Source: a virus | Direction: 5' to 3' (one strand) | DNA: 64,000 nucleotides | IMG/VR virus record: IMGVR_UViG_3300044614_002617 | Location: 46,368-110,367 of that record | In this document: positions 9,501-26,711 of the stretch, piece by piece | Numbering within the stretch: the first letter of the stretch is position 1 | Layout of the letters: every line of letters begins with the position of its first letter | The notes under the pieces: model-generated | The model's database searches: none | What the model was told of the DNA's origin: nothing | What the model saw: the letters and a program-made list of their open reading frames with translations, nothing else | Program-made: the position numbers and the translations under genes

Positions 9501-9511
9501 CGGAGTAAAAC

Positions 9512-9964: not shown

Positions 9965-9966
9965 GT

Positions 9967-10431: not shown

Positions 10432-10434
10432 TAT

Positions 10435-11489: not shown

Positions 11490-11514
11490 TTTTGGACTAT
11501 TTGTGGAGTAAGAA

Positions 11515-12459: not shown

Positions 12460-12472
12460 AAAGGAGAATAAT

Positions 12473-12727: not shown

Positions 12728-13115
12728 TTTAAGTACAATTGCTACGGCTGGTAGAGATTTTCAAGATGGTGGATTTAAAATCAATTATGGCGTATATAGC
12801 CCTACCGTAACTACCGTTTCTGGAATTGCAAACGCAAATTTTGGCAACTCCTTTAGAGATATGAGAACTGGGAACAGAACCATTAATGTTCATAATCTCA
12901 AAGATGGACAATCTTTAACAATTTTGGTTCAGGGCGCACTGAACAATGTTATTACAATAGCTGTGTTTAGCGATGCGGGAGTCACTTCCGTTCCCGTAAA
13001 ATACGGAGCAGGACAAAGCGGCACCATGGCATCCGCCTACTCGCTTTTTACCGTTTATCGTGTTGGGGGGGATTTAAATTTTGCAGTGATTGGGCCAATT
13101 CACGGGATATCGTAA
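12720..13115 (+). CDS. Small beta-rich fibre module protein, paralogue of the 24345 gene
   Basis: 131 residues, closely related along its length to the 139-residue product at 24345: shared strings include INYGVxSPTV, VHNxKDGQSxTILVQGAxN, GQxGxMASAxSLFTV and a final HGIS. The second half also matches the C-terminus of the 743-residue fibre at 18277 (SNLTDGQTININVQGANGNVI, ending HGFG). So this is a free-standing version of a fibre end domain. In both locations it directly precedes a glycine-rich protein, so the pair has been duplicated as a unit. Confidence 0.7.
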   Translation: MADLSTIATAGRDFQDGGFKINYGVYSPTVTTVSGIANANFGNSFRDMRTGNRTINVHNLKDGQSLTILVQGALNNVITIAVFSDAGVTSVPVKYGAGQSGTMASAYSLFTVYRVGGDLNFAVIGPIHGIS

Positions 13116-13116
13116 T

Positions 13117-14511
13117 ATGTTTTTTAATAATGCCGTTGGTGTGCTAGCAACACAAAAAGCAACTGAAACAGAAGAAAAAATTACATCTTCTATAACAAAA
13201 ACAATGACATCCGCATACGTACCTCAAAGTATTAAAGTTTGGGGCACTGGCGGGGGAGCCGGTGGAGCCAATGGAGCAAATGGGGCAAATGGTAATACCG
13301 GCGGCTCAGGAGTAAACGGAGGTACCGGTATAGCTGGATCCGGAGACAGCGGAGGTCGTGGCTGGTCGAGCGGCGGATACGGTTACGGTGGAGCCGGCGG
13401 AGCTGGCGGAGCCGCTGGCAACGGAGGAGCAGGCGGAGCCGGTGGAGCAGGCGGAGCAGGCGGTGGAAAAGGATCCGGAAATTTAAATAATTACATTTCT
13501 GAAAATTACAATACATATGATTTTTTTTCTGATTTTATTGGCGGGGTTGATATCGCAATTGTTGTTGGAAACGGAGGGAACGCTCAAACAAACGGAAGTT
13601 CATCTGGCCTAAGTGTTAATGGGGTTCAAAAAATTATGTATTCAGGTGGGCTCATAAACCAATCACCTGGAACGCCGGGAGCAAACGGAACAAACGGTAC
13701 GGCTGGCAGCGGCGGAGCCGGTGGAGCCGGGGGTGCGCTCGTCGGAGGATCTGGAGTAAATGGCGGAGGCGCAGGAGGAGGAAGTGGCGGAGCTGGTGGC
13801 AGCGGACGAGGAGCCGGTGGAACCGGGGGCGCCGGTGGGATTGGTGGAAGCAAGAACATTGGTTTCGTCTTAAATGGTATAGAATACGGAACCGGGGGCG
13901 CCGGTGGTAACGGGGGCGCCGGTGGTAACGGTGGAATTGGTGGACTTGGTGGAAATGGCGGAAATGGCGGAAATGGTTATGGAGGGGGAGGCGGAGGACA
14001 GTCTGTTTATCAAACAGACTTTTGGTACTCTTACGCTGGAAACTCCGGAGGTTGGGGCTGGGGCGGCGGCGGCGGTAGCGGGGCGGCTGATATCTTCGCA
14101 GCTTTACCTGGAGGAAACGGAGGCTCTTCGGTAAATGGATACAGTGGAGGAGCCGGAGGTGTGCTTCCGCCTAGTAGTTATGGAGGGGGAAGCGGAGGCG
14201 GCGGCGGTGCCGGCTCCGGCGGAAATGGCGGTGGCGGTGGCGTTGGGTATTATTCAGGAGATGTGTACTATCCGGGCGGCGGAGGCGGCGGTGGCTGGGG
14301 CGGCGGAGGAAATGGCGGACGAGGGCAAGGATATTTGGGGCCATACTCCGGGGGCTCAGAAAGCGGCTATGGCGGAAGCGGTGGAGGATACGGAGGAGCA
14401 GGCGGAGCCGGGGGTGCTTCTGGTGGGGCAGGAACATCCGGAACTGCCGGTCAAGCTGGACAAGCTGGCAAAAATGGCATAATAATTATTAGATATAAAG
14501 TGTTTGAGTAG
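13117..14511 (+). CDS. Glycine-rich adhesin-like protein (copy 1)
   Basis: I place the start at the ATG at 13117 (MFFNNAVG) rather than an upstream TTG at 13090, because it sits just past the stop of the preceding gene and aligns with the start of the paralogue at 24776. After a short beta segment (SAYVPQSIKVWGTGGGAGG) nearly the whole protein is Gly-rich, with GGAGGxGG and GGNGG repeats broken by three short non-Gly islands such as NNYISENYNTYDFFSDFIGG. The end is GQAGQAGKNGIIIIRYK. This is the layout of phage glycine-rich adhesins, where Gly-rich strands can pack as polyglycine II helices (as in the gp38 adhesin of phage S16) and the islands bind receptor. 464 residues. Confidence 0.75.
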   Translation: MFFNNAVGVLATQKATETEEKITSSITKTMTSAYVPQSIKVWGTGGGAGGANGANGANGNTGGSGVNGGTGIAGSGDSGGRGWSSGGYGYGGAGGAGGAAGNGGAGGAGGAGGAGGGKGSGNLNNYISENYNTYDFFSDFIGGVDIAIVVGNGGNAQTNGSSSGLSVNGVQKIMYSGGLINQSPGTPGANGTNGTAGSGGAGGAGGALVGGSGVNGGGAGGGSGGAGGSGRGAGGTGGAGGIGGSKNIGFVLNGIEYGTGGAGGNGGAGGNGGIGGLGGNGGNGGNGYGGGGGGQSVYQTDFWYSYAGNSGGWGWGGGGGSGAADIFAALPGGNGGSSVNGYSGGAGGVLPPSSYGGGSGGGGGAGSGGNGGGGGVGYYSGDVYYPGGGGGGGWGGGGNGGRGQGYLGPYSGGSESGYGGSGGGYGGAGGAGGASGGAGTSGTAGQAGQAGKNGIIIIRYKVFE

Positions 14512-14529
14512 AAACTAGAATACAAAAAT

Positions 14530-14558
14530 TTGACTTTAAAAAAACTGTTTTGTAAAAT
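14530..14558 (+). promoter_or_regulatory. Sigma70-like promoter TTGACT-17-TAAAAT
   Basis: TTGACT and TAAAAT are 17 bases apart, 18 bases before the ATG at 14577. A TTTGGAGG ribosome site follows the -10 closely, so the leader is very short. Confidence 0.7.
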
Positions 14559-14576
14559 TTTTTTGGAGGTTCTTAT

Positions 14577-15311
14577 ATGTCAGATATTATTGTAAGAAAT
14601 GCTGGCACAGCCGTTTCTACTATTCTAGAAACAATTAAGCCAATGTCGGTCATCAAAAAAGAAGATCAGCAGTTTCTTGTTGAGCATAAAGAGCATTTTG
14701 CTCAGGTATTTGAAAAAACGCACATCTGGAGAACAGACACACAAAAGCTTTCAATTGTTTCGGATAGCTATCACCCAACTCTACACTCTAAGTTTCATCA
14801 AGCAATTCTAGAACAAAAAGTTCAATTAGACCAGACTTTCTATTTGGCAAAAGATTTTGAAATGAAAAAAATTGAAATTGAAGAACTAATGCTAGATCTA
14901 GAGGATCTGGGCGATACCGCTAGGGACGAACTTAAAAGACGTAAATTTGAAATTGAACTTCAGTTTAAAAAGTATGAACTAGATCAAATGGTTATTTCCA
15001 TGAATTATAGAATGGCGGAAGTAAAAGGTTGGCAAAAAATTCAAGAAGATCTTTTAATTAAACTGCGAGAATCGGGAATGGACGAGGAAACAATTTGGAG
15101 CAAAGACGCTGGAGAGGTGGAGTCAATGTTCTTTGGTACACTTACTCGCTTGCAGGGTCTGGCCAAAACAACGGACGGTGCCGAAGCAAATAACCTAATA
15201 GCTTTGGCTCAGTTTTACGTACAAAAAGTTCAAGAAAGTGGAAGACTTCCGGAATTAAAAAAGAAATGCAATAAGGCTCAACTGGACTCTCTTAAATTTT
15301 TAGGATATTAA
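14577..15311 (+). CDS. Unknown helical protein (244 aa)
   Basis: I do not recognise a family. The product is mostly alpha-helical and charged, with probable coiled coil around residues 95-150 (FEMKKIEIEELMLDLEDLGD, then RDELKRRKFEIELQFKKYEL). There is no signal peptide or membrane segment. The gene has its own promoter and a strong GGAGG ribosome site and opens a group of very small genes. Placed between two fibre blocks, it might be a structural or assembly factor, but the sequence gives no direct evidence. Confidence 0.6.
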   Translation: MSDIIVRNAGTAVSTILETIKPMSVIKKEDQQFLVEHKEHFAQVFEKTHIWRTDTQKLSIVSDSYHPTLHSKFHQAILEQKVQLDQTFYLAKDFEMKKIEIEELMLDLEDLGDTARDELKRRKFEIELQFKKYELDQMVISMNYRMAEVKGWQKIQEDLLIKLRESGMDEETIWSKDAGEVESMFFGTLTRLQGLAKTTDGAEANNLIALAQFYVQKVQESGRLPELKKKCNKAQLDSLKFLGY

Positions 15312-15350
15312 TATTAAAGTTCTTGCAACAAAAGACGATAAGATTTATGG

Positions 15351-15375
15351 TAAGCATGGGAGGTTCTCATGCTTA
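15351..15375 (+). promoter_or_regulatory. Hairpin enclosing the ribosome site and start of a tiny gene
   Basis: TAAGCATG pairs perfectly with CATGCTTA (8 bp). The loop holds GGGAGG and the 3' arm holds the ATG at 15369, so folding would hide both. A run of eight T follows a few bases later, so the same element could act as a weak terminator. Confidence 0.5.
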
Positions 15376-15437
15376 TTAGCTTTTTTTTAATTATTTTGAT
15401 GGCTTACGTATTCGCCAGAACAGGGAGAACTTTATGA
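15369..15437 (+). CDS. Tiny membrane peptide (22 aa)
   Basis: MLISFFLIILMAYVFARTGR plus two residues: one hydrophobic helix and a basic tail. A GGGAGG ribosome site lies six bases upstream, and the stop overlaps the next start as ATGA, which suggests translational coupling. It could be a leader peptide for the following gene rather than a functional product. Confidence 0.4.
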   Translation: MLISFFLIILMAYVFARTGRTL

Positions 15438-15622
15438 AAATGATTTATACACTAATGGATTACGAAAACGGTAAACTAAACGCAGAAGAAACAATTAAAT
15501 TGTTTCAGAATTTGATTGACAGTGGGCTTATTTTTGGTCTGCAGGGTCATTATTTGGAAGTAGCTAGAGATTTGGTAGAAGCTGGCTTGGTTAATCTCAC
15601 AACTGCTGACATTGAGGAGTGA
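15434..15622 (+). CDS. Small conserved phage protein, DUF7417-like
   Basis: 62 residues. The string MDYENGKLNAEETIKLFQNL followed by IDSGL and LQGHYLEVARDLVEAG matches a small phage protein family (DUF7417-like: MDYExGxLxxxExxxLFQxLIxxGxxxxLQGxYxRxAxxLIxxG) seen in many tailed phages and some bacteria. The function is unknown. It overlaps the preceding tiny gene (ATGA) and leads a series of small, tightly spaced genes. Confidence 0.75.
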   Translation: MKMIYTLMDYENGKLNAEETIKLFQNLIDSGLIFGLQGHYLEVARDLVEAGLVNLTTADIEE

Positions 15623-15624
15623 TT

Positions 15625-15777
15625 ATGGTAATGGAAATGTTTGTTAATAGAATTTTAAATATCTTGCTAAATAAAAATACACTTATTCATACAACAAAAG
15701 AAATAGCAGAAGCTCAAAACATGGCTCGCCGAGCAATTGCTACCTATGAGGCGGTTGTTACAGGGAATATCTTATGA
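15625..15777 (+). CDS. Unknown 50-aa protein
   Basis: MVMEMFVNRILNILLNKNTL and onwards, ending AIATYEAVVTGNIL. It is helical, amphipathic and unassigned. It begins two bases after the preceding stop, with GAGGAG as ribosome site, and its stop overlaps the next ATG (ATGA). Tight coupling on both sides supports a real gene. Confidence 0.55.
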   Translation: MVMEMFVNRILNILLNKNTLIHTTKEIAEAQNMARRAIATYEAVVTGNIL

Positions 15778-15938
15778 CCAATAAGCATGATGACGAAGAG
15801 GGTCGTCCACCAGAAACATTAAATGAAGCTCTGATGTTTCTGGCCTACCACACAGGAATGTTTGCTTTAAAAGTGGCAGCTATTATTGCTGTCTGGGTTA
15901 TGTTAGTAGACCTTTTAAGAAGCCTTATGATGCCCTAG
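15774..15938 (+). CDS. Small membrane protein (54 aa)
   Basis: MTNKHDDEEGRPPETLNEAL followed by a hydrophobic helix (about 29-49, VAAIIAVWVMLVDLLR). A charged N-terminus with one membrane helix near the C-terminus is all that can be seen. It overlaps the previous gene by the ATGA arrangement. A holin-like role cannot be excluded but the endolysin is 30 kb away and nothing specific supports it. Confidence 0.55.
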   Translation: MTNKHDDEEGRPPETLNEALMFLAYHTGMFALKVAAIIAVWVMLVDLLRSLMMP

Positions 15939-15947
15939 GGAGTTTTT

Positions 15948-16286
15948 ATGCTTAACATTATTATTATAGCTGGTATTGTTTTAGGTGGCATGTCTCTTTC
16001 CGCTGCAAAAAGAAAGCCATTGCCTGTAGGCAGCTGCATTGCCGATAAGTTACTCTGTAATGCAAACGACCCTAATCTTGATCCATGGCAAGTCGAGTGT
16101 TACAACGGCGCATTGCTGAGAATCGAGGCGGTCGGAAAGCATTCTTACAAAACGGGTTGCGTTGAAGAAACTTTTCATTGTAAAGGATTTGTTTCTTTTA
16201 GAGACGCAAGAGATTTTTTCTTTCCGATTGAATGTCCACCCAAGGTGATGCGTCTTCGTAATTCCGTTCCGCTTCCAAAGGAGTAA
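15948..16286 (+). CDS. Exported Cys-containing small protein
   Basis: 112 residues. Residues 1-20 (MLNIIIIAGIVLGGMSLSAA) form a signal peptide or anchor with a plausible SLSAA-K cleavage region. The mature part has six Cys (CIADKLLC, VECYN, GCVEETFHC, IECPP), suggesting disulfides in the periplasm. I recognise no family. An exported disulfide-rich protein from a phage could affect the cell envelope or lysis, but that is only inference. Confidence 0.6.
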   Translation: MLNIIIIAGIVLGGMSLSAAKRKPLPVGSCIADKLLCNANDPNLDPWQVECYNGALLRIEAVGKHSYKTGCVEETFHCKGFVSFRDARDFFFPIECPPKVMRLRNSVPLPKE

Positions 16287-16289
16287 GCA

Positions 16290-16475
16290 ATGCCACAAAC
16301 ACTGATCTTGCTGACTTGTGTAATGGTGTTACTAGCTTGTTTACTTTATGTTGCCGACATGGCAAATAATTTTGTTGACACAGCGACTCAAATTTATTGC
16401 GAGCAACGAGCTGATTTTAGTAAATGCTCTCAAGAATTTAAAGAAAAAATGTCAACTCTGATGAAAAGGCACTAA
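16290..16475 (+). CDS. Small membrane protein (61 aa)
   Basis: MPQTLILLTCVMVLLACLLY is an N-terminal membrane helix; the remainder (DTATQIYCEQRADFSKCSQE and onwards) is hydrophilic with two Cys spaced by nine residues. It starts three bases after the upstream stop with AAGGAG as ribosome site. N-in, C-out topology with paired Cys is likely, similar in style to the preceding exported protein. Function unknown. Confidence 0.55.
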   Translation: MPQTLILLTCVMVLLACLLYVADMANNFVDTATQIYCEQRADFSKCSQEFKEKMSTLMKRH

Positions 16476-16489
16476 TTCTACGGTTTTTT

Positions 16490-16669
16490 ATGTCTCTAAA
16501 TATTAAAAAGCTCAGAGAGCAAATAATTCTAACAAAAGAAGGCGATGACTATGTCGCCACTCACCCTTCTCATCCTACACTTTCTGTTTGTGCACCGACA
16601 ATTTTTGAAGCAGAGCAAGAAATCTTACAATATGTTATGTATATGATTTTACTAGAAAATATAAAATAA
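16490..16669 (+). CDS. Unknown 59-aa protein
   Basis: MSLNIKKLREQIILTKEGDD followed by YVATHPSHPTLSVCAPTIFE and a helix. The ordering of strands (GDDYVATHP, SVCAPT, then EAEQEI helix) has a faint likeness to the HicB antitoxin fold, but there is no neighbouring HicA-like gene. The ribosome site is weak. It is the last gene before a structured convergent junction. Confidence 0.45.
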   Translation: MSLNIKKLREQIILTKEGDDYVATHPSHPTLSVCAPTIFEAEQEILQYVMYMILLENIK

Positions 16670-16677
16670 AAGTTTAT

Positions 16678-16722
16678 ATTTTCTGCTTTTGATTACATTC
16701 TGTGTAATCGTTAACAGAAAAT
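16678..16722. terminator. Nested inverted repeat at convergent gene ends
   Basis: An outer 8-bp arm ATTTTCTG / CAGAAAAT encloses an inner 7-bp hairpin GATTACA / TGTAATC with a five-base loop. It lies between the ends of convergent genes and may work as a terminator or 3' processing structure in both directions. There is no long T tract. Confidence 0.5.
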
Positions 16723-16737
16723 ACAAACCCAAGAAGT

Positions 16738-17190
16738 TCAAATCGGATTTGACATTTTTTGAATCAGACTAAGCGTTGTTTTAGCTCTGTAAATTTCGTA
16801 TTTTTTACCCTCGATTGAGCATCTTTTCTCATCCTTGTGCATTGCAGCCTTAACTTGTTTTACCTCTTCTTCAATCTCAGGAGAATAGTTTTTGCCGTCC
16901 TCTAGCAGCACTTTTACGTAAACAGTAACCATATCGTTACTTAAAGCGGCCACTGTTAGATAAGGTGCCCCAAGGGTTACGTTTGTTTTACTAGTAACCG
17001 CTGAACCAAGAGCATTTGCCATTTCGCTGGGAGAAAGCAATACAACTCCTAATGCGTCGGACGCTTTGGTTAGCTCAGCCACTTCATCAACGCAAGACGT
17101 TGTTGGCTCTTCAAGAATTTTATTAATAGCCAAACCACTTAATGTTATTACCGCCGCTGCTGCCAAACCAAACTTTGTTACTCTTTTCAT
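16738..17190 (-). CDS. Membrane-anchored unknown protein (150 aa)
   Basis: An N-terminal basic stretch and hydrophobic segment (MKRVTKFGLAAAAVITLSGL) indicate a signal peptide or uncleaved anchor. The rest is hydrophilic, with a beta-rich region around residues 70-100 (NVTLGAPYLTVAALSNDMVT) and a helical C-terminus with one Cys. No family recognised. Its start overlaps the stop of the zinc-ribbon gene upstream (one base), so it belongs to the same minus-strand operon. Confidence 0.6.
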   Translation of the reverse strand: MKRVTKFGLAAAAVITLSGLAINKILEEPTTSCVDEVAELTKASDALGVVLLSPSEMANALGSAVTSKTNVTLGAPYLTVAALSNDMVTVYVKVLLEDGKNYSPEIEEEVKQVKAAMHKDEKRCSIEGKKYEIYRAKTTLSLIQKMSNPI

Positions 17191-17480
17191 TACTCACCTC
17201 CTGTTTCATTATCGTATTTTTTATTAGAAACTTTAATATTTTCTTTATCGTCGCCATTCCACTCTTTTTTTACATGCTCATCTAATTTAGGCTTGTGTTT
17301 CAGCGGATAGTAATGATTTGTAATTACGTTCAGCACCATGGCTACATGCTGAGCTTTAAAACCTTCAGGCAATTTACTTGCCAGCTCTTCAGTTAAGTGA
17401 TCAAAACATAATTTTTTTGAAAACATTGGAGTAACCATCGCGTCGCATTTTTTGCATTTTTGCCACCGCTCATTTTCCAT
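17190..17480 (-). CDS. Small protein with N-terminal zinc-ribbon-like motif
   Basis: 96 residues. WQKCKKCDAMVTPMFSKKLC, then FDH, gives CxxC plus C and H spaced as a possible zinc site in the first 30 residues. The rest includes LPEGFKAQHVAMVLNVITNH (helical) and a charged tail. It may bind nucleic acid or protein; the family is unknown to me. Confidence 0.55.
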   Translation of the reverse strand: MENERWQKCKKCDAMVTPMFSKKLCFDHLTEELASKLPEGFKAQHVAMVLNVITNHYYPLKHKPKLDEHVKKEWNGDDKENIKVSNKKYDNETGGE

Positions 17481-17491
17481 AAGTCTCCTAA

Positions 17492-18031
17492 TTAAAAAAA
17501 GATTTCTTCAAACTCTTCATAATCTTTTTCAAAAATTCGCATAGTCTTATCTTTGTCAGAAATAGCTTTTAAGATGGGGGTTTTGCCCACATTATCTATT
17601 TCCGTAAAAATCCACTTAGTTCTGGTGGACTTATGAAACAAAACAGAGCCGACAGAAAACGGAAGTTTTTTTGATTTTTCGGTCTTTTTTTCTTCGGAAG
17701 TATTAGTGCGCGAATCATCCACCCACCCCCAATTTTGTTGTGATGAGGGAGGATATGTAGTGGTGTTTGTTTGAGTCTTGGTTGACAGGTCTATTTTAAC
17801 TAAGCTCAAAGACACGGGGTCTTGATACTCAACAGTCGTTATCCATGCGTCATAAGTGCATGGAATCAATCTTTTAATCATACTGTCGTGCACACTATAC
17901 TGACTGTATGTTGGGTACAACATTGTAAAATTATGACAATCTTTACTGTCTACCGTTCCATCCGCCTGCAGAACAAACGAAGAGATTTGGTCAAAATACA
18001 TATCGCCTTGGTCTAGTGGTTTTGCAGCCAT
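17492..18031 (-). CDS. Unknown protein (179 aa)
   Basis: I do not recognise this product. It has a beta-rich N-terminal half, a Ser/Thr- and Lys-rich linker (about 100-125) and a C-terminal segment VGSVLFHKSTRTKWIFTEID, then KTPILKAISDKDKTMRIFEK, that could be a small SH3-like or similar barrel. No signal peptide or membrane segment. Expressed from the minus side of the overlapping divergent promoters, in front of two other small genes. Confidence 0.6.
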   Translation of the reverse strand: MAAKPLDQGDMYFDQISSFVLQADGTVDSKDCHNFTMLYPTYSQYSVHDSMIKRLIPCTYDAWITTVEYQDPVSLSLVKIDLSTKTQTNTTTYPPSSQQNWGWVDDSRTNTSEEKKTEKSKKLPFSVGSVLFHKSTRTKWIFTEIDNVGKTPILKAISDKDKTMRIFEKDYEEFEEIFF

Positions 18032-18045
18032 ACCAACTCCAACTG

Positions 18046-18126
18046 TTATTTTGAATAAAAATCAATTAAAAATCTTAACAAAGCCGGCAATATTAAAATT
18101 AATATAATAATAACAATGTCTTGCAT
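18046..18126 (-). CDS. Tiny membrane peptide (26 aa)
   Basis: MQDIVIIILILILPALLRFL plus six residues: a single strongly hydrophobic helix. AGGAG lies seven bases upstream of the ATG. It is the first frame after the minus-strand promoter and could be a small membrane protein or a leader peptide. Confidence 0.45.
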   Translation of the reverse strand: MQDIVIIILILILPALLRFLIDFYSK

Positions 18127-18150
18127 TTTTACTCCTATATTTTTTTTAAC

Positions 18151-18179
18151 TTGCAACCACATACTAAACCTGATATAAA
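18151..18179 (+). promoter_or_regulatory. Sigma70-like promoter TTGCAA-17-TATAAA for the second fibre block
   Basis: TTGCAA and TATAAA are 17 bases apart, with a TGA just before the -10 giving an extended -10. The leader to the GTG at 18277 is about 90 bases. It overlaps the minus-strand promoter face to face. Confidence 0.65.
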
Positions 18180-18189
18180 TGTCTTGCAA
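18161..18189 (-). promoter_or_regulatory. Sigma70-like promoter TTGCAA-17-TAGTAT for the minus-strand operon
   Basis: Read on the minus strand, TTGCAA at 18184-18189 and TAGTAT at 18161-18166 are 17 bases apart. It fires toward 18126 and beyond. Each promoter's -10 falls inside the other's spacer, so polymerase could probably not bind both at once. Confidence 0.6.
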
Positions 18190-18276
18190 GCTCTTTTTGG
18201 TTTTTTAAAATTGTTTGTAAAAATCATAGACTTAAATATTAAAATAGGTATGCGTTTTTAGTACAAAGGAGAAAAC

Positions 18277-20508
18277 GTGAGCTATGTAGGCAAAAAACCT
18301 AGCTTTAAGCAGGTTCGCACAAATGAAATCGTTGTCCCAAAGGGCACCGACATTACTACAGCTGGAGTGATTACTGCTCTAGACGTTAGTAACATCAGTT
18401 TTGTGAAGCTTACGGCTGCTACTGAGTTGCAAGGCATCGTAGCGCCTGAGTCTCCGGCAATTGATGGTAAGTTGGTAACTATCGTAAACGCTTCTTCATC
18501 GGATTTGGTTATTTCTGATCAATCCGGCGGAGCGTCTGTAAATAATCGCATAGTTACCGGCACAAGTCGAAATATGCGAATTACCGCCGGCGCTTCTTTT
18601 ACGGTCGCATATGATGTTGATTCGTCTCGATGGCGAGTTACCGCTACATCGGCAGATGTTAATATTGGTCGATTGGACGTTGGAACTGGCGCACTTGCTC
18701 TAAACTCAGAAGACGTCTCCCTTACTCCGGAAAATATCAATTCATCTTTGATTGAGGTTACGGCGGGAACCGCCGCTAAAATTCGTTCCGTTGACACACA
18801 GAATGTCGGAAATCTTATTGTTTTTACCAACAAAACTGGTCAAATTTTTCAAATTAAAAATGAAGATACTGACGTACTCGTTGCGGAAAAGCGTATTCGC
18901 ACTGGTACAGGCGGCCCAATCCTAATTCAAAATAACGCCTCTGTGATGTTGGGCTACTTGGCCGATAGATGGCACGTAGTTGGTGGTACCGGATCGGGTG
19001 GTGGCGCCACGGAACAGGTTACACAAACTGGAATTGGAAACTTGCTTACATATCCCGTTGGTACTCCACTTTATGTTGACACAACAACGGGTCTGTGGAC
19101 AAAAGCAAGTGCCGTTTCGGCAGACGCTGCAGAAGTTGCAGGCCTTCTTGGTCGTAGCCTAAACACTAATTTTGCTGAAGTTGCTTTGGCGGGAGAAGTA
19201 AGCGAAGTAACCGCAGATGCCTTTGCGGAGGCCGTATTGCCACCCAAGGGCTCCGCTGTGTTTTTGTCTACCACAGCGGGAAAACTTACAGTTTCCGATG
19301 TGACTACAGTTGGGTGTATTAGTAAACCAGTCGGCATTGTCCATAATGTAACAGGAACATCTTCGGTTGATATTATATTTTACAATCAACGAGGGGTTGT
19401 TGTTGGCGGCGTAAACGCAAGAACACAAATTCTTCTTGGTGGCTCCCCAAGTGCGCCGGTTGTTACGCCAATTCAAAATGTTTCACAATACGAAGCGGGT
19501 GAGATTGCCGGTTGGATTACAATTAATGCGAGCACTGATTATCAGTTTTATTTTCAAGCTCAGTTTACAAAAATTCCTAACACATCGAATTACAGTATTG
19601 CCGTTCCTCAAACAGTTGGGTCGACTCCTCCAGCGGGTTTTTCGATGGACGTTGTGTCAGGAGTCGTGCAAGTAACTTTGCCCGCGTTGGCTGGTTTTGT
19701 TACTGCATACGTCAATTTTGCTCTAAATGCACCGGCAGTTGGCGCAACACTGCCTTTAAGTATTAATTCAACGAGTGTGTATACAACATACAAAATGGTG
19801 TCTGGCGCATACAGTATTGGGAGCACGGACAGCTTAATTGCCGCAACCGGCGCAAGCACTTATGCTATTACCCTACCGACGGCTGTCGGTGCCTTGGGCG
19901 TTGCCTATACGATTAAGTCCGAAATGAACGCGGGAGTTGCGCTAACGGTTAACACAACAAGCGGACAGCTTATAGACACGGTTTCATCTAAAACACTAGC
20001 AACTGGCGAAGTTCTTAAGGTTGTAAGTGACGGAAATAAATGGATAGCTATTATTTCTCAACAAGACGTAACCGCAGCATTAACCGCATCTAGGGCGGTT
20101 CAAACGGATGTGGATAAAAAATTAGTCAGCGCTGGCTTTAGCTTGCCTGCTGTTGCCGGCTCTAATTTGCAATTTTTATCGTCCAATGGAGATGGAACTT
20201 CGTCTTGGAGAGACGTTATAAAGCTAACCGCAACCACAAGCGGAGCCGTTGATGCAAGCCTAAGCGATTCTTTTATTCACAACGGGAGCGGCTCTAGAAC
20301 AATTTCTGTCAGTAATTTAACGGATGGCCAGACAATTAACATAAACGTGCAGGGCGCAAATGGAAATGTTATTAGTTGGACTACTACAGGCTTAACGCAA
20401 AAAACAGGAATAACTTATAGTAATACGATGATCAGCGTGAATAGCATTTTCACACTGTCTCGCTTTGGGTCAAATGTTTTTATTAGCTCTTTGCATGGAT
20501 TTGGGTGA
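18277..20508 (+). CDS. Modular tail fibre (743 aa)
   Basis: Begins with GTG; SYVGKKPSFKQVRTNE is a typical N-terminus for phage fibre and structural proteins, and AAAGGAG lies just upstream. The shaft carries several ITLP-type modules (AATGASTYAITLPTAVG, then VNTTSGQLIDTV), one of which is also in the S74 fibre at 22935. Residues about 280-505 match the module in the 1635-residue fibre at 4593 (EVAGLLGRS, GEVSEV, ISKPVGI, TPPAGF). The last 80 residues (SNLTDGQTININVQGANGNV, ending HGFG) match the small proteins at 12720 and 24345. It is thus built from parts found in at least three other genes here. Confidence 0.8.
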   Translation: MSYVGKKPSFKQVRTNEIVVPKGTDITTAGVITALDVSNISFVKLTAATELQGIVAPESPAIDGKLVTIVNASSSDLVISDQSGGASVNNRIVTGTSRNMRITAGASFTVAYDVDSSRWRVTATSADVNIGRLDVGTGALALNSEDVSLTPENINSSLIEVTAGTAAKIRSVDTQNVGNLIVFTNKTGQIFQIKNEDTDVLVAEKRIRTGTGGPILIQNNASVMLGYLADRWHVVGGTGSGGGATEQVTQTGIGNLLTYPVGTPLYVDTTTGLWTKASAVSADAAEVAGLLGRSLNTNFAEVALAGEVSEVTADAFAEAVLPPKGSAVFLSTTAGKLTVSDVTTVGCISKPVGIVHNVTGTSSVDIIFYNQRGVVVGGVNARTQILLGGSPSAPVVTPIQNVSQYEAGEIAGWITINASTDYQFYFQAQFTKIPNTSNYSIAVPQTVGSTPPAGFSMDVVSGVVQVTLPALAGFVTAYVNFALNAPAVGATLPLSINSTSVYTTYKMVSGAYSIGSTDSLIAATGASTYAITLPTAVGALGVAYTIKSEMNAGVALTVNTTSGQLIDTVSSKTLATGEVLKVVSDGNKWIAIISQQDVTAALTASRAVQTDVDKKLVSAGFSLPAVAGSNLQFLSSNGDGTSSWRDVIKLTATTSGAVDASLSDSFIHNGSGSRTISVSNLTDGQTININVQGANGNVISWTTTGLTQKTGITYSNTMISVNSIFTLSRFGSNVFISSLHGFG

Positions 20509-20511
20509 TAT

Positions 20512-21408
20512 ATGGCTTTTCCAATTGCTCATTTTCAAAATTTTATCGGTAGGGGTTATTTCGGTGGAGGTTTTTCCGGTAGTTTTTTAAACGAAATAGA
20601 TGGTATACAATTTAATACTGAAGCTGCCATCAACCCATCTGCAACTCTAGCGGTAGTTAGAATTAATTTGGCGGGCGTCAATTCAGCATCCAGGGGTTAT
20701 TTCGGTGGAGGTTTTTCTGGCGGCGCCACATATTCAAATGAAATAGATGGTATACAATTTAATACTGAAGCTGCCATCAACCCATCTGCAACTTTGGCGG
20801 TAGCTAGAACTTCATTGGCGGGCGTCAATTCAGCATCCAGGGGTTATTTCGGTGGAGGTTTTGATGTCAGTTCGGTAAACGAAATAGATGGAATAGATTT
20901 TAATACTGAAGCTGCCATCAACCCATCTGCAACTTTGGCGGCAGCTAGAGATGGTTTGGTAGGCGTCAATTCGGCATCTAGAGGTTATTTTGGTGGAGGT
21001 GCATATACAAACGAAATAGATGGCATACAATTTAATACTGAAGCTGCCATCAACCCATCTGCAACTCTAGCGGTAGCTAGATTTGGAATGGCAGGCGTCA
21101 ATTCGGCATCCAGGGGTTATTTCGGTGGAGGTTTTGATACTAACGGTCTGGTAAACGAAATAGATGGAATAGATTTTAATACTGAAGCTGCCATCAACCC
21201 ATCTGCAACTCTAGTAGAATCCAGAGGCGGCTCAGCGGGTGTTAATTCGATGTCTAGGGGTTATTTTGGTGGAGGGTATTCTGGTAACCCTACATATTCA
21301 AATGAAATAGACGGAATACAGTTTAGCACTGAAGTCGTCACAAATCCATCTGCAACTTTGGCAGTAGCTAGAAATAATCTAGCAGGCGTTCAGTGGGGTG
21401 CATTATGA
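20512..21408 (+). CDS. Kelch-like tandem-repeat protein
   Basis: After 13 residues the protein is six repeats of 44-49 residues: RGYFGGG, a variable loop, NEIDGIxFNTEAAINPSATL, then A-x-x-R-x-x-L-A-G-V-N-S. The aromatic, double-Gly and spacing fit one beta-propeller blade per repeat, as in kelch-type repeat proteins common in metagenomic phages; six blades would close a propeller. The only strongly variable parts are the loop after GGG and a few residues after the R, where a ligand could bind. The nucleotide copies are nearly identical, so they are recent. Lies among fibre genes, so a host-binding role is likely but inferred. Confidence 0.75.
   Translation: MAFPIAHFQNFIGRGYFGGGFSGSFLNEIDGIQFNTEAAINPSATLAVVRINLAGVNSASRGYFGGGFSGGATYSNEIDGIQFNTEAAINPSATLAVARTSLAGVNSASRGYFGGGFDVSSVNEIDGIDFNTEAAINPSATLAAARDGLVGVNSASRGYFGGGAYTNEIDGIQFNTEAAINPSATLAVARFGMAGVNSASRGYFGGGFDTNGLVNEIDGIDFNTEAAINPSATLVESRGGSAGVNSMSRGYFGGGYSGNPTYSNEIDGIQFSTEVVTNPSATLAVARNNLAGVQWGAL
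20551..21390 (+). repeat. Six tandem repeats of 132-147 bp inside the kelch-like gene
   Basis: The segment GAAGCTGCCATCAACCCATC and its flanks recur in near-identical form at spacings of 147, 141, 132, 144 and 147 bases; the last copy is the most diverged. Length differences are multiples of three and fall in one loop. Confidence 0.9.
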
Positions 21409-22028
21409 AATACTCTGAATTGGTAGAAAAAGAGCTTTTGGATAAATGCGAAGATATTCCGTTTGGCAATTCGCTATATCAGGACGAAAGTTTTGTCCTT
21501 AACACTTCTTATACGGATGCTCGAGCGGTTCGCAATATAGGCCTTGCATTATCTGCACGGGTTAGAGCGCTAAAAGAGTTGGAATACGGGCTAGAAACAC
21601 TTCAAGTAGAACTGGAAGAGTTGGATTATAAAATTGAAAATAGTCCAGATTCTTTTGAGCGTCGAAAGTTGGCTATAGAAAAAAGAAAAAAACAAGACGG
21701 CACTGCGTATACATTAAAGCTGCTAAAAGATACGCTATATGAAATTGAATATTTTCGTAAAATATTAGAAAAATTACCAAAATTATCAAGAGCAGAGTTT
21801 GAAGAGCAAGAAAAACAATATTTTATGGAATCTTTAACTAGACAAGCAGTTGGGTTGAGCGAACCTGACAAAAACCTCGCAGCTATGGGGCTGAAAGAAC
21901 GTCCAAAGGTAGACTTTATTTCTGCCACTTTATCTGAAAAATTAAATATATCAGTATCCGCCGTTTTAGGCGGCATAGTCTTGCCATCCCACGAAAATAT
22001 TCTTAAGCTAAGCGGAGGAGATGAATAA
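21405..22028 (+). CDS. Unknown helical protein between fibre genes
   Basis: I place the start at 21405 (MKYSELVEKE), which overlaps the preceding stop as ATGA; an in-frame upstream start would add four residues. About 207 residues, mostly helical, with coiled coil around 65-135 (LEYGLETLQVELEELDYKIE and LKLLKDTLYEIEYFRKILEK). No membrane segment or enzyme motif. It is coupled to the next gene by a TAATG overlap. A fibre assembly factor or trimeric connector would suit its place, but I know no family for it. Confidence 0.6.
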   Translation: MKYSELVEKELLDKCEDIPFGNSLYQDESFVLNTSYTDARAVRNIGLALSARVRALKELEYGLETLQVELEELDYKIENSPDSFERRKLAIEKRKKQDGTAYTLKLLKDTLYEIEYFRKILEKLPKLSRAEFEEQEKQYFMESLTRQAVGLSEPDKNLAAMGLKERPKVDFISATLSEKLNISVSAVLGGIVLPSHENILKLSGGDE

Positions 22029-22687
22029 TGCCTATAGTTTCAATGTTAGTAAGCGTTAATGGGCCTGGAACTATCCCTCTTGGTGCTGTTATTTCGATTG
22101 GCAATCCTGGGGCATGGGCTTTGCCCGCTGCGGGAGAAATCAAAGATGGATATGCTCTGTGTAACGGTCAAGCCTTTCCTGCCGGCAGTAGCCCGTTATT
22201 TTCTGGAACAATGCCAAACCTTTCAGACAGTAGATTTTTGCAAGGTTCTAGTTCTGTGGGCGGAACAGGCGGTGCCAATAGCAAAACACTAGCGACCGCT
22301 GAGTTACCTGCACATACTCATACAATGGCACACACTCACGGTATAGATCATGACCACCCCAACGCTTCAACAGGCTCTAGCGGTGACCATGACCATAGAA
22401 TTTTGTCTCCATTTGGAGGTGCCGGGAATGAATACTTAAGTTGGAATACTGGACCCGATAACAACTACGCGGGACCTGAATTAAATGCAACTAATTCGCC
22501 TCCAGACAACTTTTCTTTAGTTAGAACGGAGTATTTAGGTAGTCATACACACAGTTTGGATTTACCAAATTTTACTGGAACATCTGGAGCCGCTTCTAAT
22601 TCAACGACGAGCCCCGTTGGCTCTGGAACTTCTTTTGATATTCGTCCACAATACTTTAATGTTGTTTATTTGATGAGGGTAATTTAA
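22028..22687 (+). CDS. Phage tail collar-domain fibre with HxH metal-binding repeats
   Basis: 219 residues. PLGAVISIGNPGAWALP and GYALCNGQAFP followed by PNLSDSRFLQG match the phage tail collar domain. Then come repeated HxH motifs (HTHTMAHTHG, HDHP, DHDHR, HTHS), which in T4 gp37 and related tips coordinate metal ions along the trimer axis. The end FDIRPQYFNVVYLMRVI matches the close of this domain family. Likely a short tail-fibre or receptor-binding tip. Confidence 0.85.
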   Translation: MPIVSMLVSVNGPGTIPLGAVISIGNPGAWALPAAGEIKDGYALCNGQAFPAGSSPLFSGTMPNLSDSRFLQGSSSVGGTGGANSKTLATAELPAHTHTMAHTHGIDHDHPNASTGSSGDHDHRILSPFGGAGNEYLSWNTGPDNNYAGPELNATNSPPDNFSLVRTEYLGSHTHSLDLPNFTGTSGAASNSTTSPVGSGTSFDIRPQYFNVVYLMRVI

Positions 22688-22688
22688 T

Positions 22689-22925
22689 ATGGAATATGTA
22701 ATTGTTTATAAATACAAGGCATCTTGGTTTTGGAAAAAACAAAAAGTAACCGGTCACTCCTATAATAAAGAAGTGGACAAGCTAGTTCTCTTTAAAAAAG
22801 ACGGTTCACTTGAAGAGGTTGCGGAGTGGTCTAAGCATCACGTTAAGTTGGGTGTGGACTTTGTTGCTGCGCAAAAAAAGCAAATGGAAAAAGAAACAGG
22901 AACAGATATAAAGTTAAATGTATAA
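22689..22925 (+). CDS. Small fibre-neighbour protein (78 aa)
   Basis: MEYVIVYKYKASWFWKKQKV, then GHSYNKEVDKLVLFKKDGSL and VKLGVDFVAAQKKQMEKETG, matches a small phage protein I have seen near tail-fibre genes (KATWFWKxxKVxGH, then KxVLYxxDGSxxEI). The function is not known to me. It starts two bases after the collar fibre, which suggests a partner or chaperone of the fibre. Confidence 0.6.
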   Translation: MEYVIVYKYKASWFWKKQKVTGHSYNKEVDKLVLFKKDGSLEEVAEWSKHHVKLGVDFVAAQKKQMEKETGTDIKLNV

Positions 22926-22934
22926 GGATTTATT

Positions 22935-24320
22935 ATGGCTTTAAAAACAATATATCAAGGCCCAAATGGCGCCGTTGCTATAGATGAACAGCAGAATACG
23001 ACTGTATCTGCTGATTATAATGCTGTTTTTTCTGATTATATTATCACTGCCACAGGAGCAGGAAACTTTACGATTACCCTACCTCCAGCAAATCCGTCCA
23101 ACGGTAAAAATGTAGTCGTTAAGTGCTTGACTACAAACCCAATCACAGTGAGCGCTCAAAGCGGAGAGTTTATTGACACTGTACCCTCCAAGGCTCTTTT
23201 AAACGGCGAAGTTCTTGAGGTGCTAAGTGACGGTACCAAATGGATTAATACCGCAGGCGATGCAATCTCTGGTTCAAAAATTATTAACGGAACTGTTACC
23301 GGAGATAAATTAGCTGCCAACAGTGTTACTGCTGACAAATTAGCTACTAACAGTGTTACTGCGGATAAAATCGCTAACAATACAATAACAGGAGCAAAAT
23401 TAGCCGCAGACAGCGTTACGGCCGACAAAATTGCCACTGGAGCCGTTGGAACAACTGAAATTAGTACAAGTGCTGAGCCAACTGTTAGTACGATATATTC
23501 TAATAGTTGGTTTAGAAGCAATGGAAATTCTGGCTGGTACAATCAAACGTATGGCGGCGGAATTTTTATGGAATCTTCGGATGTTATAAAAACCTATGGA
23601 GGTAAAAATTTTTACTGTAGCGGACAAATTTCTGCAGGAAGCTTTTGGGGATCTTATTACGGAACAATGTACCCATCAACCATTAGGTTTTACCCAGACA
23701 ATCCGGGATCTGGAACAGGAGATACCGCAATTATGTCTTGGGGTCAAAAATCAAGTTTTACGGAAAATTGCAGACTAACCATTGAGGTTCAAAACGACCC
23801 AACCGATGATGTTTTAATTACAACAAATCAGGGATATATACAAGTCGGCGGAACAGATTACGACGCCGGAATAAATATAAAAGCATCGAGTCAGATAATT
23901 TTATGGTATCCCAATAGACGTTTTGTATTACAATCCGATGGAAATGCGGTAATATACAATCAATTTGGTACGGCAGTGTGGGCATCGGGAACAGCCGGTT
24001 CGGATCTTAAATTAAAAGAAAATATAAAAACATATACAGAGCTCAGTGTAGAAAAAATTAAAAAATTAAGAGTAATAGAGTTTAATTATATAGAAAATTA
24101 CGATAATTCTATGGAAACAAAAGTAGGTTTTATTGCTCAAGATGTAGAAAAAATTATACCTCAAGCGGTAAAAAGCATTGGTCAAAATCAAGAAAAAACT
24201 CTTTTGCTTCATAAAGAAGAAATAGTTCCGTATCTTGTAAAAGCCGTTCAGGAGCAGCAAACACAAATAGAAGCTTTGGAAGAACGAATTAAAAAATTAG
24301 AAGAATTGATAAAATATTAA
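22935..24320 (+). CDS. Tail fibre with C-terminal S74 self-cleaving chaperone domain
   Basis: 461 residues. The start has an ITLP-type module (TATGAGNFTITLPPANPSN) like that in the 743-residue fibre. A repeated hydrophilic beta stretch follows (GDKLAANSVTADKLATNSVT). From residue 356 the protein has the S74 intramolecular chaperone: SDLKLKENIK with the Ser356 and Lys361 dyad, GFIAQDVEKIIPQAV, and a coiled-coil tail EEIVPYLVKAVQEQQTQIEA. The domain guides trimerisation and then cleaves itself off at the Ser, so the mature fibre should be about 355 residues. No catalytic residue appears to be missing. Confidence 0.85.
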   Translation: MALKTIYQGPNGAVAIDEQQNTTVSADYNAVFSDYIITATGAGNFTITLPPANPSNGKNVVVKCLTTNPITVSAQSGEFIDTVPSKALLNGEVLEVLSDGTKWINTAGDAISGSKIINGTVTGDKLAANSVTADKLATNSVTADKIANNTITGAKLAADSVTADKIATGAVGTTEISTSAEPTVSTIYSNSWFRSNGNSGWYNQTYGGGIFMESSDVIKTYGGKNFYCSGQISAGSFWGSYYGTMYPSTIRFYPDNPGSGTGDTAIMSWGQKSSFTENCRLTIEVQNDPTDDVLITTNQGYIQVGGTDYDAGINIKASSQIILWYPNRRFVLQSDGNAVIYNQFGTAVWASGTAGSDLKLKENIKTYTELSVEKIKKLRVIEFNYIENYDNSMETKVGFIAQDVEKIIPQAVKSIGQNQEKTLLLHKEEIVPYLVKAVQEQQTQIEALEERIKKLEELIKY

Positions 24321-24344
24321 TTTTATTAAAAAAAGGAAGTAATC

Positions 24345-24764
24345 ATGGCAAATTCAGCAATTGCAACAGCTACCCTAACAGACCTAAGAACTCGCTATCA
24401 AGACGGGAGTTTGAAAATTGATTATGGTGTTTTTAGTCCAACTGTTGATGTAAGTAGTAATACTGTTGATGCTTCTTTGGGCGCGAACTTTAAAGCCTTG
24501 GGTTCGGGCAACAGAACCTTGTCTGTTCATAATATGAAAGATGGCCAATCTGTAACGATTTTAGTTCAAGGCGCAGTAAACGATGCTATTACGTTAAATG
24601 CGTACTCCGACGGAGGAGTAACAGCATTATCGGTAAAATTTGCTGCAGGTCAAAACGGAATTATGGCTTCTGCATGGTCGTTGTTTACTGTTATGAGAAT
24701 CGGTGGGACAAGCGGCGCAGGCGCTAATTTTGCCGTTGTTGGTGTAATGCACGGAATTTCATAA
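24345..24764 (+). CDS. Small beta-rich fibre module protein, paralogue of the 12720 gene
   Basis: 139 residues, the second copy of the protein at 12720, with the strings LKIDYGVFSPTVD, VHNMKDGQSVTILVQGAVND, GQNGIMASAWSLFTV and a final HGIS. A short insertion GGTSGAGANF distinguishes the copies. It again precedes a glycine-rich protein by 12 bases, supporting duplication of the two-gene unit and a functional partnership. Confidence 0.7.
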   Translation: MANSAIATATLTDLRTRYQDGSLKIDYGVFSPTVDVSSNTVDASLGANFKALGSGNRTLSVHNMKDGQSVTILVQGAVNDAITLNAYSDGGVTALSVKFAAGQNGIMASAWSLFTVMRIGGTSGAGANFAVVGVMHGIS

Positions 24765-24775
24765 GAGAGATAAAA

Positions 24776-26149
24776 ATGATATTCAATGCTCCAATTAAAG
24801 TAACCCCTCAAAGAACCGAAGAAGTTGAAGAAAAAATTACATCTTCTACAACAAAAACAATGACATCTGCATATGTACCTCAAAGCATTAAGGTTTGGGG
24901 TATTGGCGGAGGCGCAGGAGGAGGAGGAGGCGGGAGCGGAAGCAACGGTAGCTCCGGTGGGGCGGGATGGACAGGCGAAACCGGTGGAGGCGGTAGCGGG
25001 AGTGCTGGGTCAAATGCTCCCGATCAGTATTCCAATCCCGGAAATTCAGGAACCGGGGGTACAGCTTATGGAGGTTACGGTGGAGCTGGTGGAGCGGGTG
25101 GAAGCGGAGGCTCGGGCGGAAATGGTGGAGCGGGCGGAAACGGGGGCGGCCGAGGAGCTGGAAACTTAAATGGTTACCTTGCCGGAAACTCTTTTGACAG
25201 CTTAGCCGATTACATTGGAAATTTGACTTTGAGTATTACTATCGGTAGCGGGGGATCTGCCAATTCAAGTGGCGGCACTACTGTTGTTGCAATTAACGCT
25301 GTGCCTAAAATTACCTATTCCGGTGGCCTGCTGTCTGCAGGAAATGCTGGAAACGGAGGGGGTTTTGGCAGTGGAGGAGGTAGTGGCAGTGGAGGAGGAT
25401 CCAGAGGCTCTGGCCAGGTTTTGGGACCAAACGGTAAGGATGCTAGGGGGGCGCCGGGCGGCGGTCGCGGTGGCGGAGGTTCTGGAGGTGGCGGAGGTTC
25501 TGGAGGTGGCGGAGGTTCTGGCGGAGCAGGCCAATCTGGAATAATTATTTCAGGAATCGAATATGGCGGAGGGGGCTCTGGTGGGGCCGGAGGTTCCGGC
25601 GGAGCTGGCGGAGCCGGAGGTAACGGCGGAGCGGGCGGAAACGGTGGCATGGGATATGGAGGCGGCGGAGGAGGAAGCTTTGAGTCTGCCTTTAGAAACG
25701 GTGGCTCCGGAGGAGCTGGGTGGGCAGGCGGAGGAGGCGGATCTACTGGGGCGCCATCATCATTTTCAGGAAGCGGAGGTATATCCATTTATAGCGGAAG
25801 ATCCGGCGGTTCTGGGGGGCAAGGTGCATTAAGAACCACGGTAGGATATGTTTATTTTTATGGCGGTGGCGGCGGCGGAGGAGGAACGTGGCAAAACGGA
25901 GGAAGAGGTACAAATGCATCGGCAATAAGCCAAACGCATGGAACAGCCGGAGCCGGCGGCGCTGATGGCGGCGGAGGCGGTGGGCGGTTTGGATCCGGTG
26001 GTGGTCGCGGTGGCGCTGGGGGCGGAGTTGGTGGAGCTGGAGGAGACGGCGGAGCATCTGGCGCTGGGGGCGGAAGCGGACAAACCGGACAAGCTGGACA
26101 AGCTGGCAAAAATGGCATAATAATATTAAGATATAAAATATTCAAATAA
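24776..26149 (+). CDS. Glycine-rich adhesin-like protein (copy 2)
   Basis: 457 residues. The N-terminus (EEVEEKITSSTTKTMTSAYV, then PQSIKVWGIGGGAGG) and C-terminus (GQAGQAGKNGIIILRYK) are almost the same as in copy 1 at 13117, while the Gly-rich middle has diverged. Non-Gly islands include GNLNGYLAGNSFDSLADYIG, GGSFESAFRNGG and RTTVGYVYFYGG; these loops are where receptor specificity would be expected in a gp38-type adhesin. Antisense frames opposite the Gly codons look like Pro-rich ORFs but are artefacts. Confidence 0.75.
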   Translation: MIFNAPIKVTPQRTEEVEEKITSSTTKTMTSAYVPQSIKVWGIGGGAGGGGGGSGSNGSSGGAGWTGETGGGGSGSAGSNAPDQYSNPGNSGTGGTAYGGYGGAGGAGGSGGSGGNGGAGGNGGGRGAGNLNGYLAGNSFDSLADYIGNLTLSITIGSGGSANSSGGTTVVAINAVPKITYSGGLLSAGNAGNGGGFGSGGGSGSGGGSRGSGQVLGPNGKDARGAPGGGRGGGGSGGGGGSGGGGGSGGAGQSGIIISGIEYGGGGSGGAGGSGGAGGAGGNGGAGGNGGMGYGGGGGGSFESAFRNGGSGGAGWAGGGGGSTGAPSSFSGSGGISIYSGRSGGSGGQGALRTTVGYVYFYGGGGGGGGTWQNGGRGTNASAISQTHGTAGAGGADGGGGGGRFGSGGGRGGAGGGVGGAGGDGGASGAGGGSGQTGQAGQAGKNGIIILRYKIFK

Positions 26150-26162: not shown

Positions 26163-26711
26163 ATGGCACTAAGAGATTATCTTTCTGCAAAGACCTATAC
26201 TGCAATTTCAAATTTAATCTACGAAAAAAACCTCAAACGCTGCACAGCGATGCTTGAGATCTGGACAGATGATTCAAAAACGCTTCTTCTCGCAAACAAA
26301 GGCGTAACAATTGACGGAACAATTAAAATTCCTCCTGTCGCAAGTCTAGAGATTCTAGCTCAATCTGAGCCAGAAGACAAAAACCCTGACATGTACTATA
26401 TTATTGCTCAAGACGCAAAAGGCTCATTTGCTGGTTATGAAGGACAGCTAACGCGGTTCAACCCACATACAAATAATTGGGATAAGTGGGTTTTGTGGGA
26501 AGGTCTTATGGTTTTTGTTGAAGATGAAAGTAAGTATTATCAAAGAGTCGACGGAAACTGGAAAGAAAATCTAGATTGCTCTTCCGATGCTCGCATTTGG
26601 GACAAATGGATGGCTCCCGAAATTGCTATGGCAAAGGGAACCAATCCTATGCAACAAATGTATAAATTTATGAAAACATTGCCACAATTTAAAAACTGCA
26701 AAGACGCTTAA
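26163..26711 (+). CDS. DUF2793-like tail protein
   Basis: 182 residues. VASLEILAQSEPEDKNPDMY, then GSFAGYEGQLTRFNPHTNNW, then VLWEGLMVFVEDESKYYQRV and GNWKEN, follow the repeating pattern of DUF2793-type phage tail proteins (P-x-D, YxI, G-x-W-x-G, W-x-x-x-x-P/W-EG, YxV). The link is by pattern only. It closes the second fibre block and is followed by a terminator. Function in tail or fibre binding is inferred from context. Confidence 0.6.
   Translation: MALRDYLSAKTYTAISNLIYEKNLKRCTAMLEIWTDDSKTLLLANKGVTIDGTIKIPPVASLEILAQSEPEDKNPDMYYIIAQDAKGSFAGYEGQLTRFNPHTNNWDKWVLWEGLMVFVEDESKYYQRVDGNWKENLDCSSDARIWDKWMAPEIAMAKGTNPMQQMYKFMKTLPQFKNCKDA

What the first reader, a model, noticed from the sequence alone, without database searches (positions are those of the whole stretch)
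13117..26149. Duplicated pair: small beta-rich protein plus glycine-rich adhesin
The pairs at 12720/13117 and 24345/24776 keep order, spacing and almost identical ends of the Gly-rich proteins, while the Gly-rich centres and their short islands differ. This suggests two adhesin alleles carried side by side, perhaps for different receptors, with ends kept alike by attachment to the same partner or by gene conversion.
Basis: partly seen in the sequence, partly recalled or inferred. Interest (0 to 1): 0.6.

Follow-up and report, generated by a model that had tools for sequence, protein, structure and literature searches.

The report
Two paired glycine-rich phage tip adhesins
This virus of bacteria appears to carry two copies of a two-gene tail-fibre tip, one kept nearly constant and one repeatedly replaced among its relatives, with leftover traces of the replacement that show how such phages may change what they stick to.

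Summary
Two gene pairs (small beta-rich protein, then Gly-rich protein of ~460 aa, 41-42% Gly) lie at 12720/13117 and 24345/24776. The small proteins are 56-59% identical; the Gly proteins share ~97 nt near the 5' end (89%) and ~125 nt at the 3' end (74%), while their centres differ. The pairs are two old paralogous loci, not recent alleles: both occur in two related IMG/VR phages, and A matches A and B matches B. Relatives show how they evolve. (1) Small gene plus Gly residues 1-18 is strictly locus-specific; from residue 19 this signal vanishes, as expected if A and B exchange that stretch. (2) GlyA is 464 aa in all six phages and was partly exchanged between phages. (3) The GlyB centre is unrelated among phages (18% of non-Gly sites, as A versus B) although its small gene is 88% identical. 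(4) One relative keeps an orphan 3' end of a Gly adhesin where the window's GlyB ends, behind a new adhesin with its own DUF2793 partner. Best reading: fibre-tip adhesins working like T2/S16 gp38, Pam3 gp24 or hafunavirus adhesins, with a stable and a replaceable locus. Sequence membership in gp38 or Gly_rich_2 was not met. Binding and expression are untested.

The parts
12720..13115 (+). small A: 131-aa beta-rich protein, likely connector or fibre-end domain
   Evidence: AF2 model of its paralogue has a beta core at pLDDT ~89 and matches phage tail-fibre domains in BFVD, E ~1e-5
13117..14511 (+). GlyA: 464-aa Gly-rich protein (41% Gly, GGX runs), putative fibre-tip adhesin, conserved locus
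   Evidence: 464 aa in window and in all five relatives
13171..13267 (+). GlyA 5' stretch (from residue 19) shared with GlyB, where the A/B identity is lost
13300..13779 (+). segment of GlyA recently exchanged with the G002 lineage (2.3% differences against 13.8% downstream)
14380..14504 (+). GlyA 3' stretch shared with GlyB, ends in strand IIIIRYKVF
24345..24764 (+). small B: 139-aa paralogue of small A
24776..26149 (+). GlyB: 457-aa Gly-rich protein, replaceable locus
24827..24923 (+). GlyB 5' stretch shared with GlyA; beyond it the gene diverges abruptly from G002
26018..26142 (+). GlyB 3' stretch shared with GlyA; homologous to the orphan 3' end in L007 10312-10473
26163..26711 (+). 182-aa DUF2793-like protein directly after GlyB, putative partner or assembly factor of the B adhesin
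   Evidence: PF10983, E 3e-6, above cut-off; three copies in G001, one behind the active adhesin, one behind the relic
20230..20508 (+). C-terminal domain of the 743-aa fibre, homologous to small A and B
   Evidence: E 7e-12; hhalign 98%
20512..21408 (+). 298-aa protein of six ~47-aa kelch-like repeats, a different putative tip behind the same connector domain
   Evidence: phrog_19111 E 6.5e-52; D3
22935..24320 (+). 461-aa tail fibre with C-terminal S74 chaperone domain, upstream of pair B

Best explanation
Each pair is a tail-fibre tip module: the small beta protein is a connector (the same domain is the C-terminal end of a long fibre in this phage), and the Gly-rich protein caps it as the receptor-binding adhesin. 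The beta-strand ends of the Gly protein would form its base and the GGX stretches a lattice of polyglycine-II-like strands, with the short non-Gly islands as binding loops. The phage carries two such modules at two old, separate loci. Locus A is kept nearly constant and travels between phages as a block. Locus B is the replaceable one: its centre, and in one relative the whole adhesin together with its DUF2793 partner gene, has been replaced. Residues 19-51, and to a lesser degree the C-terminal end, serve as shared homology and are evened out between A and B; residues 1-18 stay matched to the locus's own small protein. Shown: duplication, its age, locus-specificity, exchange tracts, relic. 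Inferred: fibre-tip position, fold of the centre, receptor binding, partner role of the DUF2793 protein.
For: Order and spacing are conserved in all eight pairs of six phages plus the window's two. Neighbours are tail fibres with C1q/TNF-like, collar and S74 domains. The small protein fold matches phage tail-fibre domains and the fibre C-terminus. Quartet sites A|B in small genes are 92 of 100, in Gly residues 1-18 13 of 13, in residues 19-51 3 of 7 (window/G002) and 0 of 6 (window/G001), Fisher p 0.0018 and 7e-6. Pair A is a 90% block in a 75-81% background, with a 480-bp tract at 2.3% differences (p 6e-13). GlyB centre identity between window and G001 is 0.18 against 0.42 for GlyA, although small B is 88% and small A 82% identical. 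An orphan Gly 3' end lies in G001 at the syntenic place, with the true 182-aa orthologue behind it (65%) and a 44% paralogue behind the active adhesin. No reverse transcriptase, invertase or integrase was found in the records held.
Against: No family or PDB match for the Gly proteins; AF2 failed on GlyA (pLDDT 37), so the lattice fold is an analogy. Only two full GlyB genes and one truncated one are known. Window and relatives are assembled metagenome contigs; Gly repeats may cause chimeric joins. Residues 19-51 hold few informative sites (6-7), and strong constraint could blur them. Nothing shows expression, virion location or binding.
Confidence: 0.6

Rival explanations
1. Ordinary ancient gene duplication: both ends are alike only because they hold the folding core or bind the same partner, without any gene conversion; differences in the centres are plain divergence of fast-evolving loops.
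For: The alike stretches coincide with predicted strands. Synonymous divergence A-B in the N-end is still 0.40-0.59, so any conversion is not recent.
Against: The A/B signal switches off sharply at residue 19, at synonymous sites too, while small gene and residues 1-18 keep it. GlyB centre divergence is out of line with its 88%-identical small gene, and the orphan 3' end shows a replacement, not slow divergence.
Confidence: 0.22
2. Programmed variation: the two genes, or the orphan end in G001, form a donor/recipient system (DGR, invertible segment or silent cassette) that switches the tip during growth.
For: The orphan 3' end has a homologous C-end and could serve as donor; shared ends lie in direct orientation 11.6 kb apart.
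Against: No reverse transcriptase, serine invertase or tyrosine integrase in the held parts of six records. Both genes are complete with their own starts; the orphan holds only ~38 adhesin residues.
Confidence: 0.06
3. The Gly-rich proteins are not adhesins but fibre shaft or spacer proteins, the small proteins being structural subunits; variation is drift in low-complexity sequence.
For: No receptor-binding evidence, no solved homologue.
Against: GlyA keeps exactly 464 codons, with pN 0.06 against pS 0.20 between window and G002. The last-gene position behind a fibre-end domain, the variable islands and the turnover fit tips of known phages (PMC6851490, PMC9608196, PMC8651126).
Confidence: 0.12

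Closest known systems
gp38 adhesins of T2-type phages (Salmonella phage S16, PDB 6F45; PP01)
   Same: Separate gene directly after the fibre's distal part; Gly-rich motifs alternating with hypervariable segments; modular evolution (PMC6851490, PMC12892980)
   Different: No sequence similarity (hhalign at the level of shuffled controls; PF05268 not found). No N-terminal Trp-bearing helical attachment domain: the first 50 residues are predicted strand. Much larger (464 against 249 aa), long GGX runs, two copies per phage
Pam3 gp24 tail fibre (TNF-like plus glycine-rich domain, PDB 7yfw)
   Same: Strands of a beta domain flank and extend into Gly-rich loops stacked as a lattice, with variable distal tips (PMC9608196); the strand-flanked layout of GlyA predicted is similar
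   Different: Pam3 is one self-contained trimeric fibre with an N-terminal helical shaft and a Tfa-like chaperone; here no shaft, a separate small beta protein, and no sequence match
Hafunavirus Gly-rich tail adhesin plus small downstream gene
   Same: Gly-rich adhesin followed by a small gene in a hypervariable locus that sets host range (PMC8651126)
   Different: Described as one adhesin per virus in the passages read; here two loci and an upstream small beta protein; homology not tested
Pfam Gly_rich_2 (PF21722)
   Same: By eye, a similar start (strand ending in VWGxGGGxGG) and a mid-protein Ixx-G-GG strand (recalled, not a test)
   Different: No match at E <= 10 in the genome

Membership tests
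T2-type gp38 adhesin (PF05268) | Sequence match to PF05268 or to S16 gp38 | tested here: not met
   no match at E<=10; hhalign no better than shuffled gp38
T2-type gp38 adhesin (PF05268) | N-terminal helical attachment domain with exposed Trp | tested here: not met
   Residues 1-41 of GlyA hold no Trp and are predicted as strands (weak model)
T2-type gp38 adhesin (PF05268) | Gly-rich motifs folded as a polyglycine II sandwich with hypervariable loops | tested here: inconclusive
   Gly runs and islands present but AF2 pLDDT 37
T2-type gp38 adhesin (PF05268) | Gene directly downstream of the distal fibre gene | tested here: inconclusive
   Directly downstream of a small protein that is homologous to a fibre C-terminus, not of a full fibre gene
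Gly_rich_2 (PF21722) | Profile match above 24.3 bits | tested here: not met
   composition bias may hide a distant match
Pam3 gp24-type TNF-like/Gly-rich fibre | TNF-like domain plus Gly-rich lattice | tested here: inconclusive
   No PDB sequence match; fold not predictable here
Phage tail-fibre C-terminal beta domain (for small A/B) | Beta fold shared with tail-fibre ends | tested here: met
   own fibre; 81 BFVD hits with E<=0.001, many named tail fibre, others uncharacterised; no PDB hit better than 0.02
Diversity-generating retroelement / invertible fibre system | Reverse transcriptase or site-specific recombinase | tested here: not met
   in incomplete records

The most novel reading that the evidence does not exclude
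A two-tier tip system: one phage lineage keeps a constant Gly-rich adhesin at one locus and a replaceable one at a second, mounted through one connector family that also accepts an unrelated kelch-like tip. Replacement at the second locus brings in adhesin plus cognate DUF2793 partner and leaves an orphan adhesin 3' end behind, as displaced toxin ends do in polymorphic toxin loci.
Probability: 0.3. Interest if true: 0.6.

Novelty: new variant of a known kind. Interest (0 to 1): 0.48.

Why it matters
Host range of many phages is set by small tip adhesins, but how tips are replaced without losing a working one is seldom visible. Here a conserved and a variable tip locus sit in one genome, with exchange tracts, a sharp boundary between docking part and exchangeable part (residue 18/19), and a leftover of a displaced tip. 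It gives testable predictions on which residues dock and which bind, and suggests a partner gene (DUF2793) for the variable tip.

Tried and rejected
Family searches with all Gly proteins (Pfam, PHROGs, NCBIfam) found nothing; Gly composition defeats HMMER filters. PDB sequence searches gave only Gly-linker and collagen noise. The small-protein match to Tako8 is a sum of seven insignificant repeats and was rejected. AF2 of GlyA failed, so no fold search was run on it. No relatives in named phages or prokaryote genomes. Looking for the window's 743-aa fibre end in other viruses gave nothing significant. Codon constraint as the cause of the low-divergence tract in GlyA was rejected: the same codons are saturated between window and G001. 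A DGR or invertase was looked for and not found.

Full report
Setting. The window is positions 46368-110367 of a 110,367-base virus record. It holds tail-fibre genes up to about 43 kb and a DnaE-like DNA polymerase (phrog_405, E 5.7e-187) whose nearest named relative is that of Myxococcus phage Mx1 at 32% identity. Neither the small protein nor GlyB has a match in 50,697 named phage records, and the small protein family has none in one-per-species prokaryote genomes. The host is unknown.

What is there. Pair A is 12720-13115 and 13117-14511; pair B is 24345-24764 and 24776-26149. The small proteins align over their whole length at 56-59% identity. The Gly proteins (464 and 457 aa, 41-42% Gly, strong period of three from GGX runs up to ~28 residues) share a 97-nt stretch near the start (89%) and a 125-nt stretch at the end (74%). 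At sites that are not Gly in both, identity is 24/26 in the N-stretch, 13/18 at the C-end, 45/229 in the centre.

A third copy of the connector. The C-terminal ~90 residues of the 743-aa fibre at 18277-20508 are homologous to the small proteins (BLASTP 7e-12, hhalign 98%). Four bases later a 298-aa protein of six kelch-like repeats follows. In G001 and G002 this fibre ends in a collar-type domain instead, and relative to G002 the window carries about 2 kb of extra sequence here (about 19978-22114). So one connector domain sits in front of two unrelated tip candidates. The AF2 model of small B has a confident beta core (pLDDT about 87-91 from residue 41 to 120) and matches tail-fibre proteins in BFVD (E about 1e-5), but nothing significant in the PDB.

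Relatives. IMG/VR gave five phages: G001 = 3300043427_003220, G002 = 3300020196_000142, G003 = 3300020578_000341, G004 = 3300020083_000006, G005 = 3300020183_005033. G001 and G002 hold both pairs; G003-G005 show only A, and their contigs end 43-64 bases after the GlyA stop. G002, G003 and G004 are near identical here, so the independent lineages are fewer than six. Small A is 82-92% identical to other small A genes and small B 86-88% to other small B genes, while A against B is 55-59%. The duplication is thus older than these phages.

Where locus identity ends. Counting sites that support A|B grouping, within-genome grouping or cross grouping in the window/G002 quartet gives 92:4:4 in the small genes, 13:0:0 in Gly residues 1-18, and 3:1:3 in residues 19-51. 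For window/G001 it is 57:4:2, 7:0:1 and 0:3:3 (Fisher p 0.0018 and 7e-6). So small protein and Gly residues 1-18 form one locus-specific block, and residues 19-51 have been exchanged or evened out. Both G001 copies read EERF where all window and G002 copies read EEKI. Synonymous divergence between A and B is 0.40-0.59 in this stretch against 0.65-0.75 in the small genes, so it is not recent. Inference: residues 1-18 dock on the matching small protein; the shared stretch is core structure and a place for crossovers.

Locus A is conserved and moves as a block. GlyA has 464 codons in all six phages. Against G002, window 12091-14499 is 90% identical in a background of 75-81%. Within GlyA, 13300-13779 differs at 11 of 480 sites, 13780-14499 at 99 of 720 (p 6e-13); fourfold sites agree, and the same codons are saturated against G001, so this is recent transfer, not constraint. 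G002 and G005 have nearly identical GlyA but a divergent tract inside small A.

Locus B is replaceable. Small B is 88% identical between window and G001, yet the non-Gly sites of the GlyB centre are 18% identical (40/224, 70 gap columns), no more than A against B, while GlyA has 42% with 8 gap columns. Against G002, GlyB is similar up to about codon 41 and then diverges at 23 of 60 sites; the contig ends there.

A displaced tip. In G001, L007 10312-10473 reads MLKYQFTVRKSPTVGAGGPSGGASASGGAAGQSGTAGQSGKNGIMIIRYKIFK*. Its last 37 codons match the end of window GlyB (26 of 37 positions including the stop; 74% of nt), and the alignment runs on into the gene behind it. That gene is the best match (65%) of the window's 182-aa DUF2793-like gene, which in the window follows GlyB directly. 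In G001 the working adhesin lies upstream with its own copy of the DUF2793 gene (44% to the window's), and a third copy (51%) follows. The simplest reading is that a new adhesin plus its partner gene was inserted at or before the old adhesin, of which only the 3' end is left. In other phages chaperones or accessory proteins are encoded directly behind the fibre or adhesin (PMC7289586), which fits a partner role of the DUF2793 protein; this is inference.

Comparison. The closest workings are S16 and PP01 gp38 (PMC6851490, PMC12892980), Pam3 gp24 (PMC9608196; PDB code from PMC12671077) and the hafunavirus Gly-rich adhesins with a small gene behind them (PMC8651126). Membership in the gp38 and Gly_rich_2 families was tested and not met. 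The comparison of the orphan end with displaced toxin ends in polymorphic toxin loci rests on general knowledge and is an analogy only.

Limits. B is represented by two full genes and one fragment; all sequences are metagenomic; the Gly centres could not be folded; expression, virion position and binding are untested.

Noticed in passing
window 20512-21408: 298-aa protein of six ~47-aa kelch-like repeats (phrog_19111), inserted with a 211-aa gene between fibre and collar protein relative to G002; related sequence occurs at 15 places in Synechococcus phage S-SKS1.
   Followed up: partly
L007 10312-10473 (G001): Orphan 3' end of a Gly-rich adhesin with its own ATG, preceded by a terminator-like hairpin, between two DUF2793-like genes.
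   Followed up: yes
L015 12536-13411 (G002): 291-aa protein that by eye looks like a glucose-1-phosphate thymidylyltransferase (RmlA-like) inside the tail-fibre region, absent at this place in window and G001; a sugar-nucleotide gene among receptor-binding genes.
   Followed up: no
window 4593-12459: Several fibre or short proteins ending in C1q/TNF-like heads (phrog_15750, PF00386): 1635-aa fibre, 180-aa and 314-aa proteins; their number and heads differ between relatives.
   Followed up: no
ends of G003, G004, G005: Three contigs end 43-64 bases after the GlyA stop, suggesting population variation begins right there.
   Followed up: partly
L041 (3300022752_000195) 957-1998: More distant relative in which the 78-aa gene upstream of locus B is followed by the homologue of window 14577-15311 and not by fibre plus pair B.
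   Followed up: no
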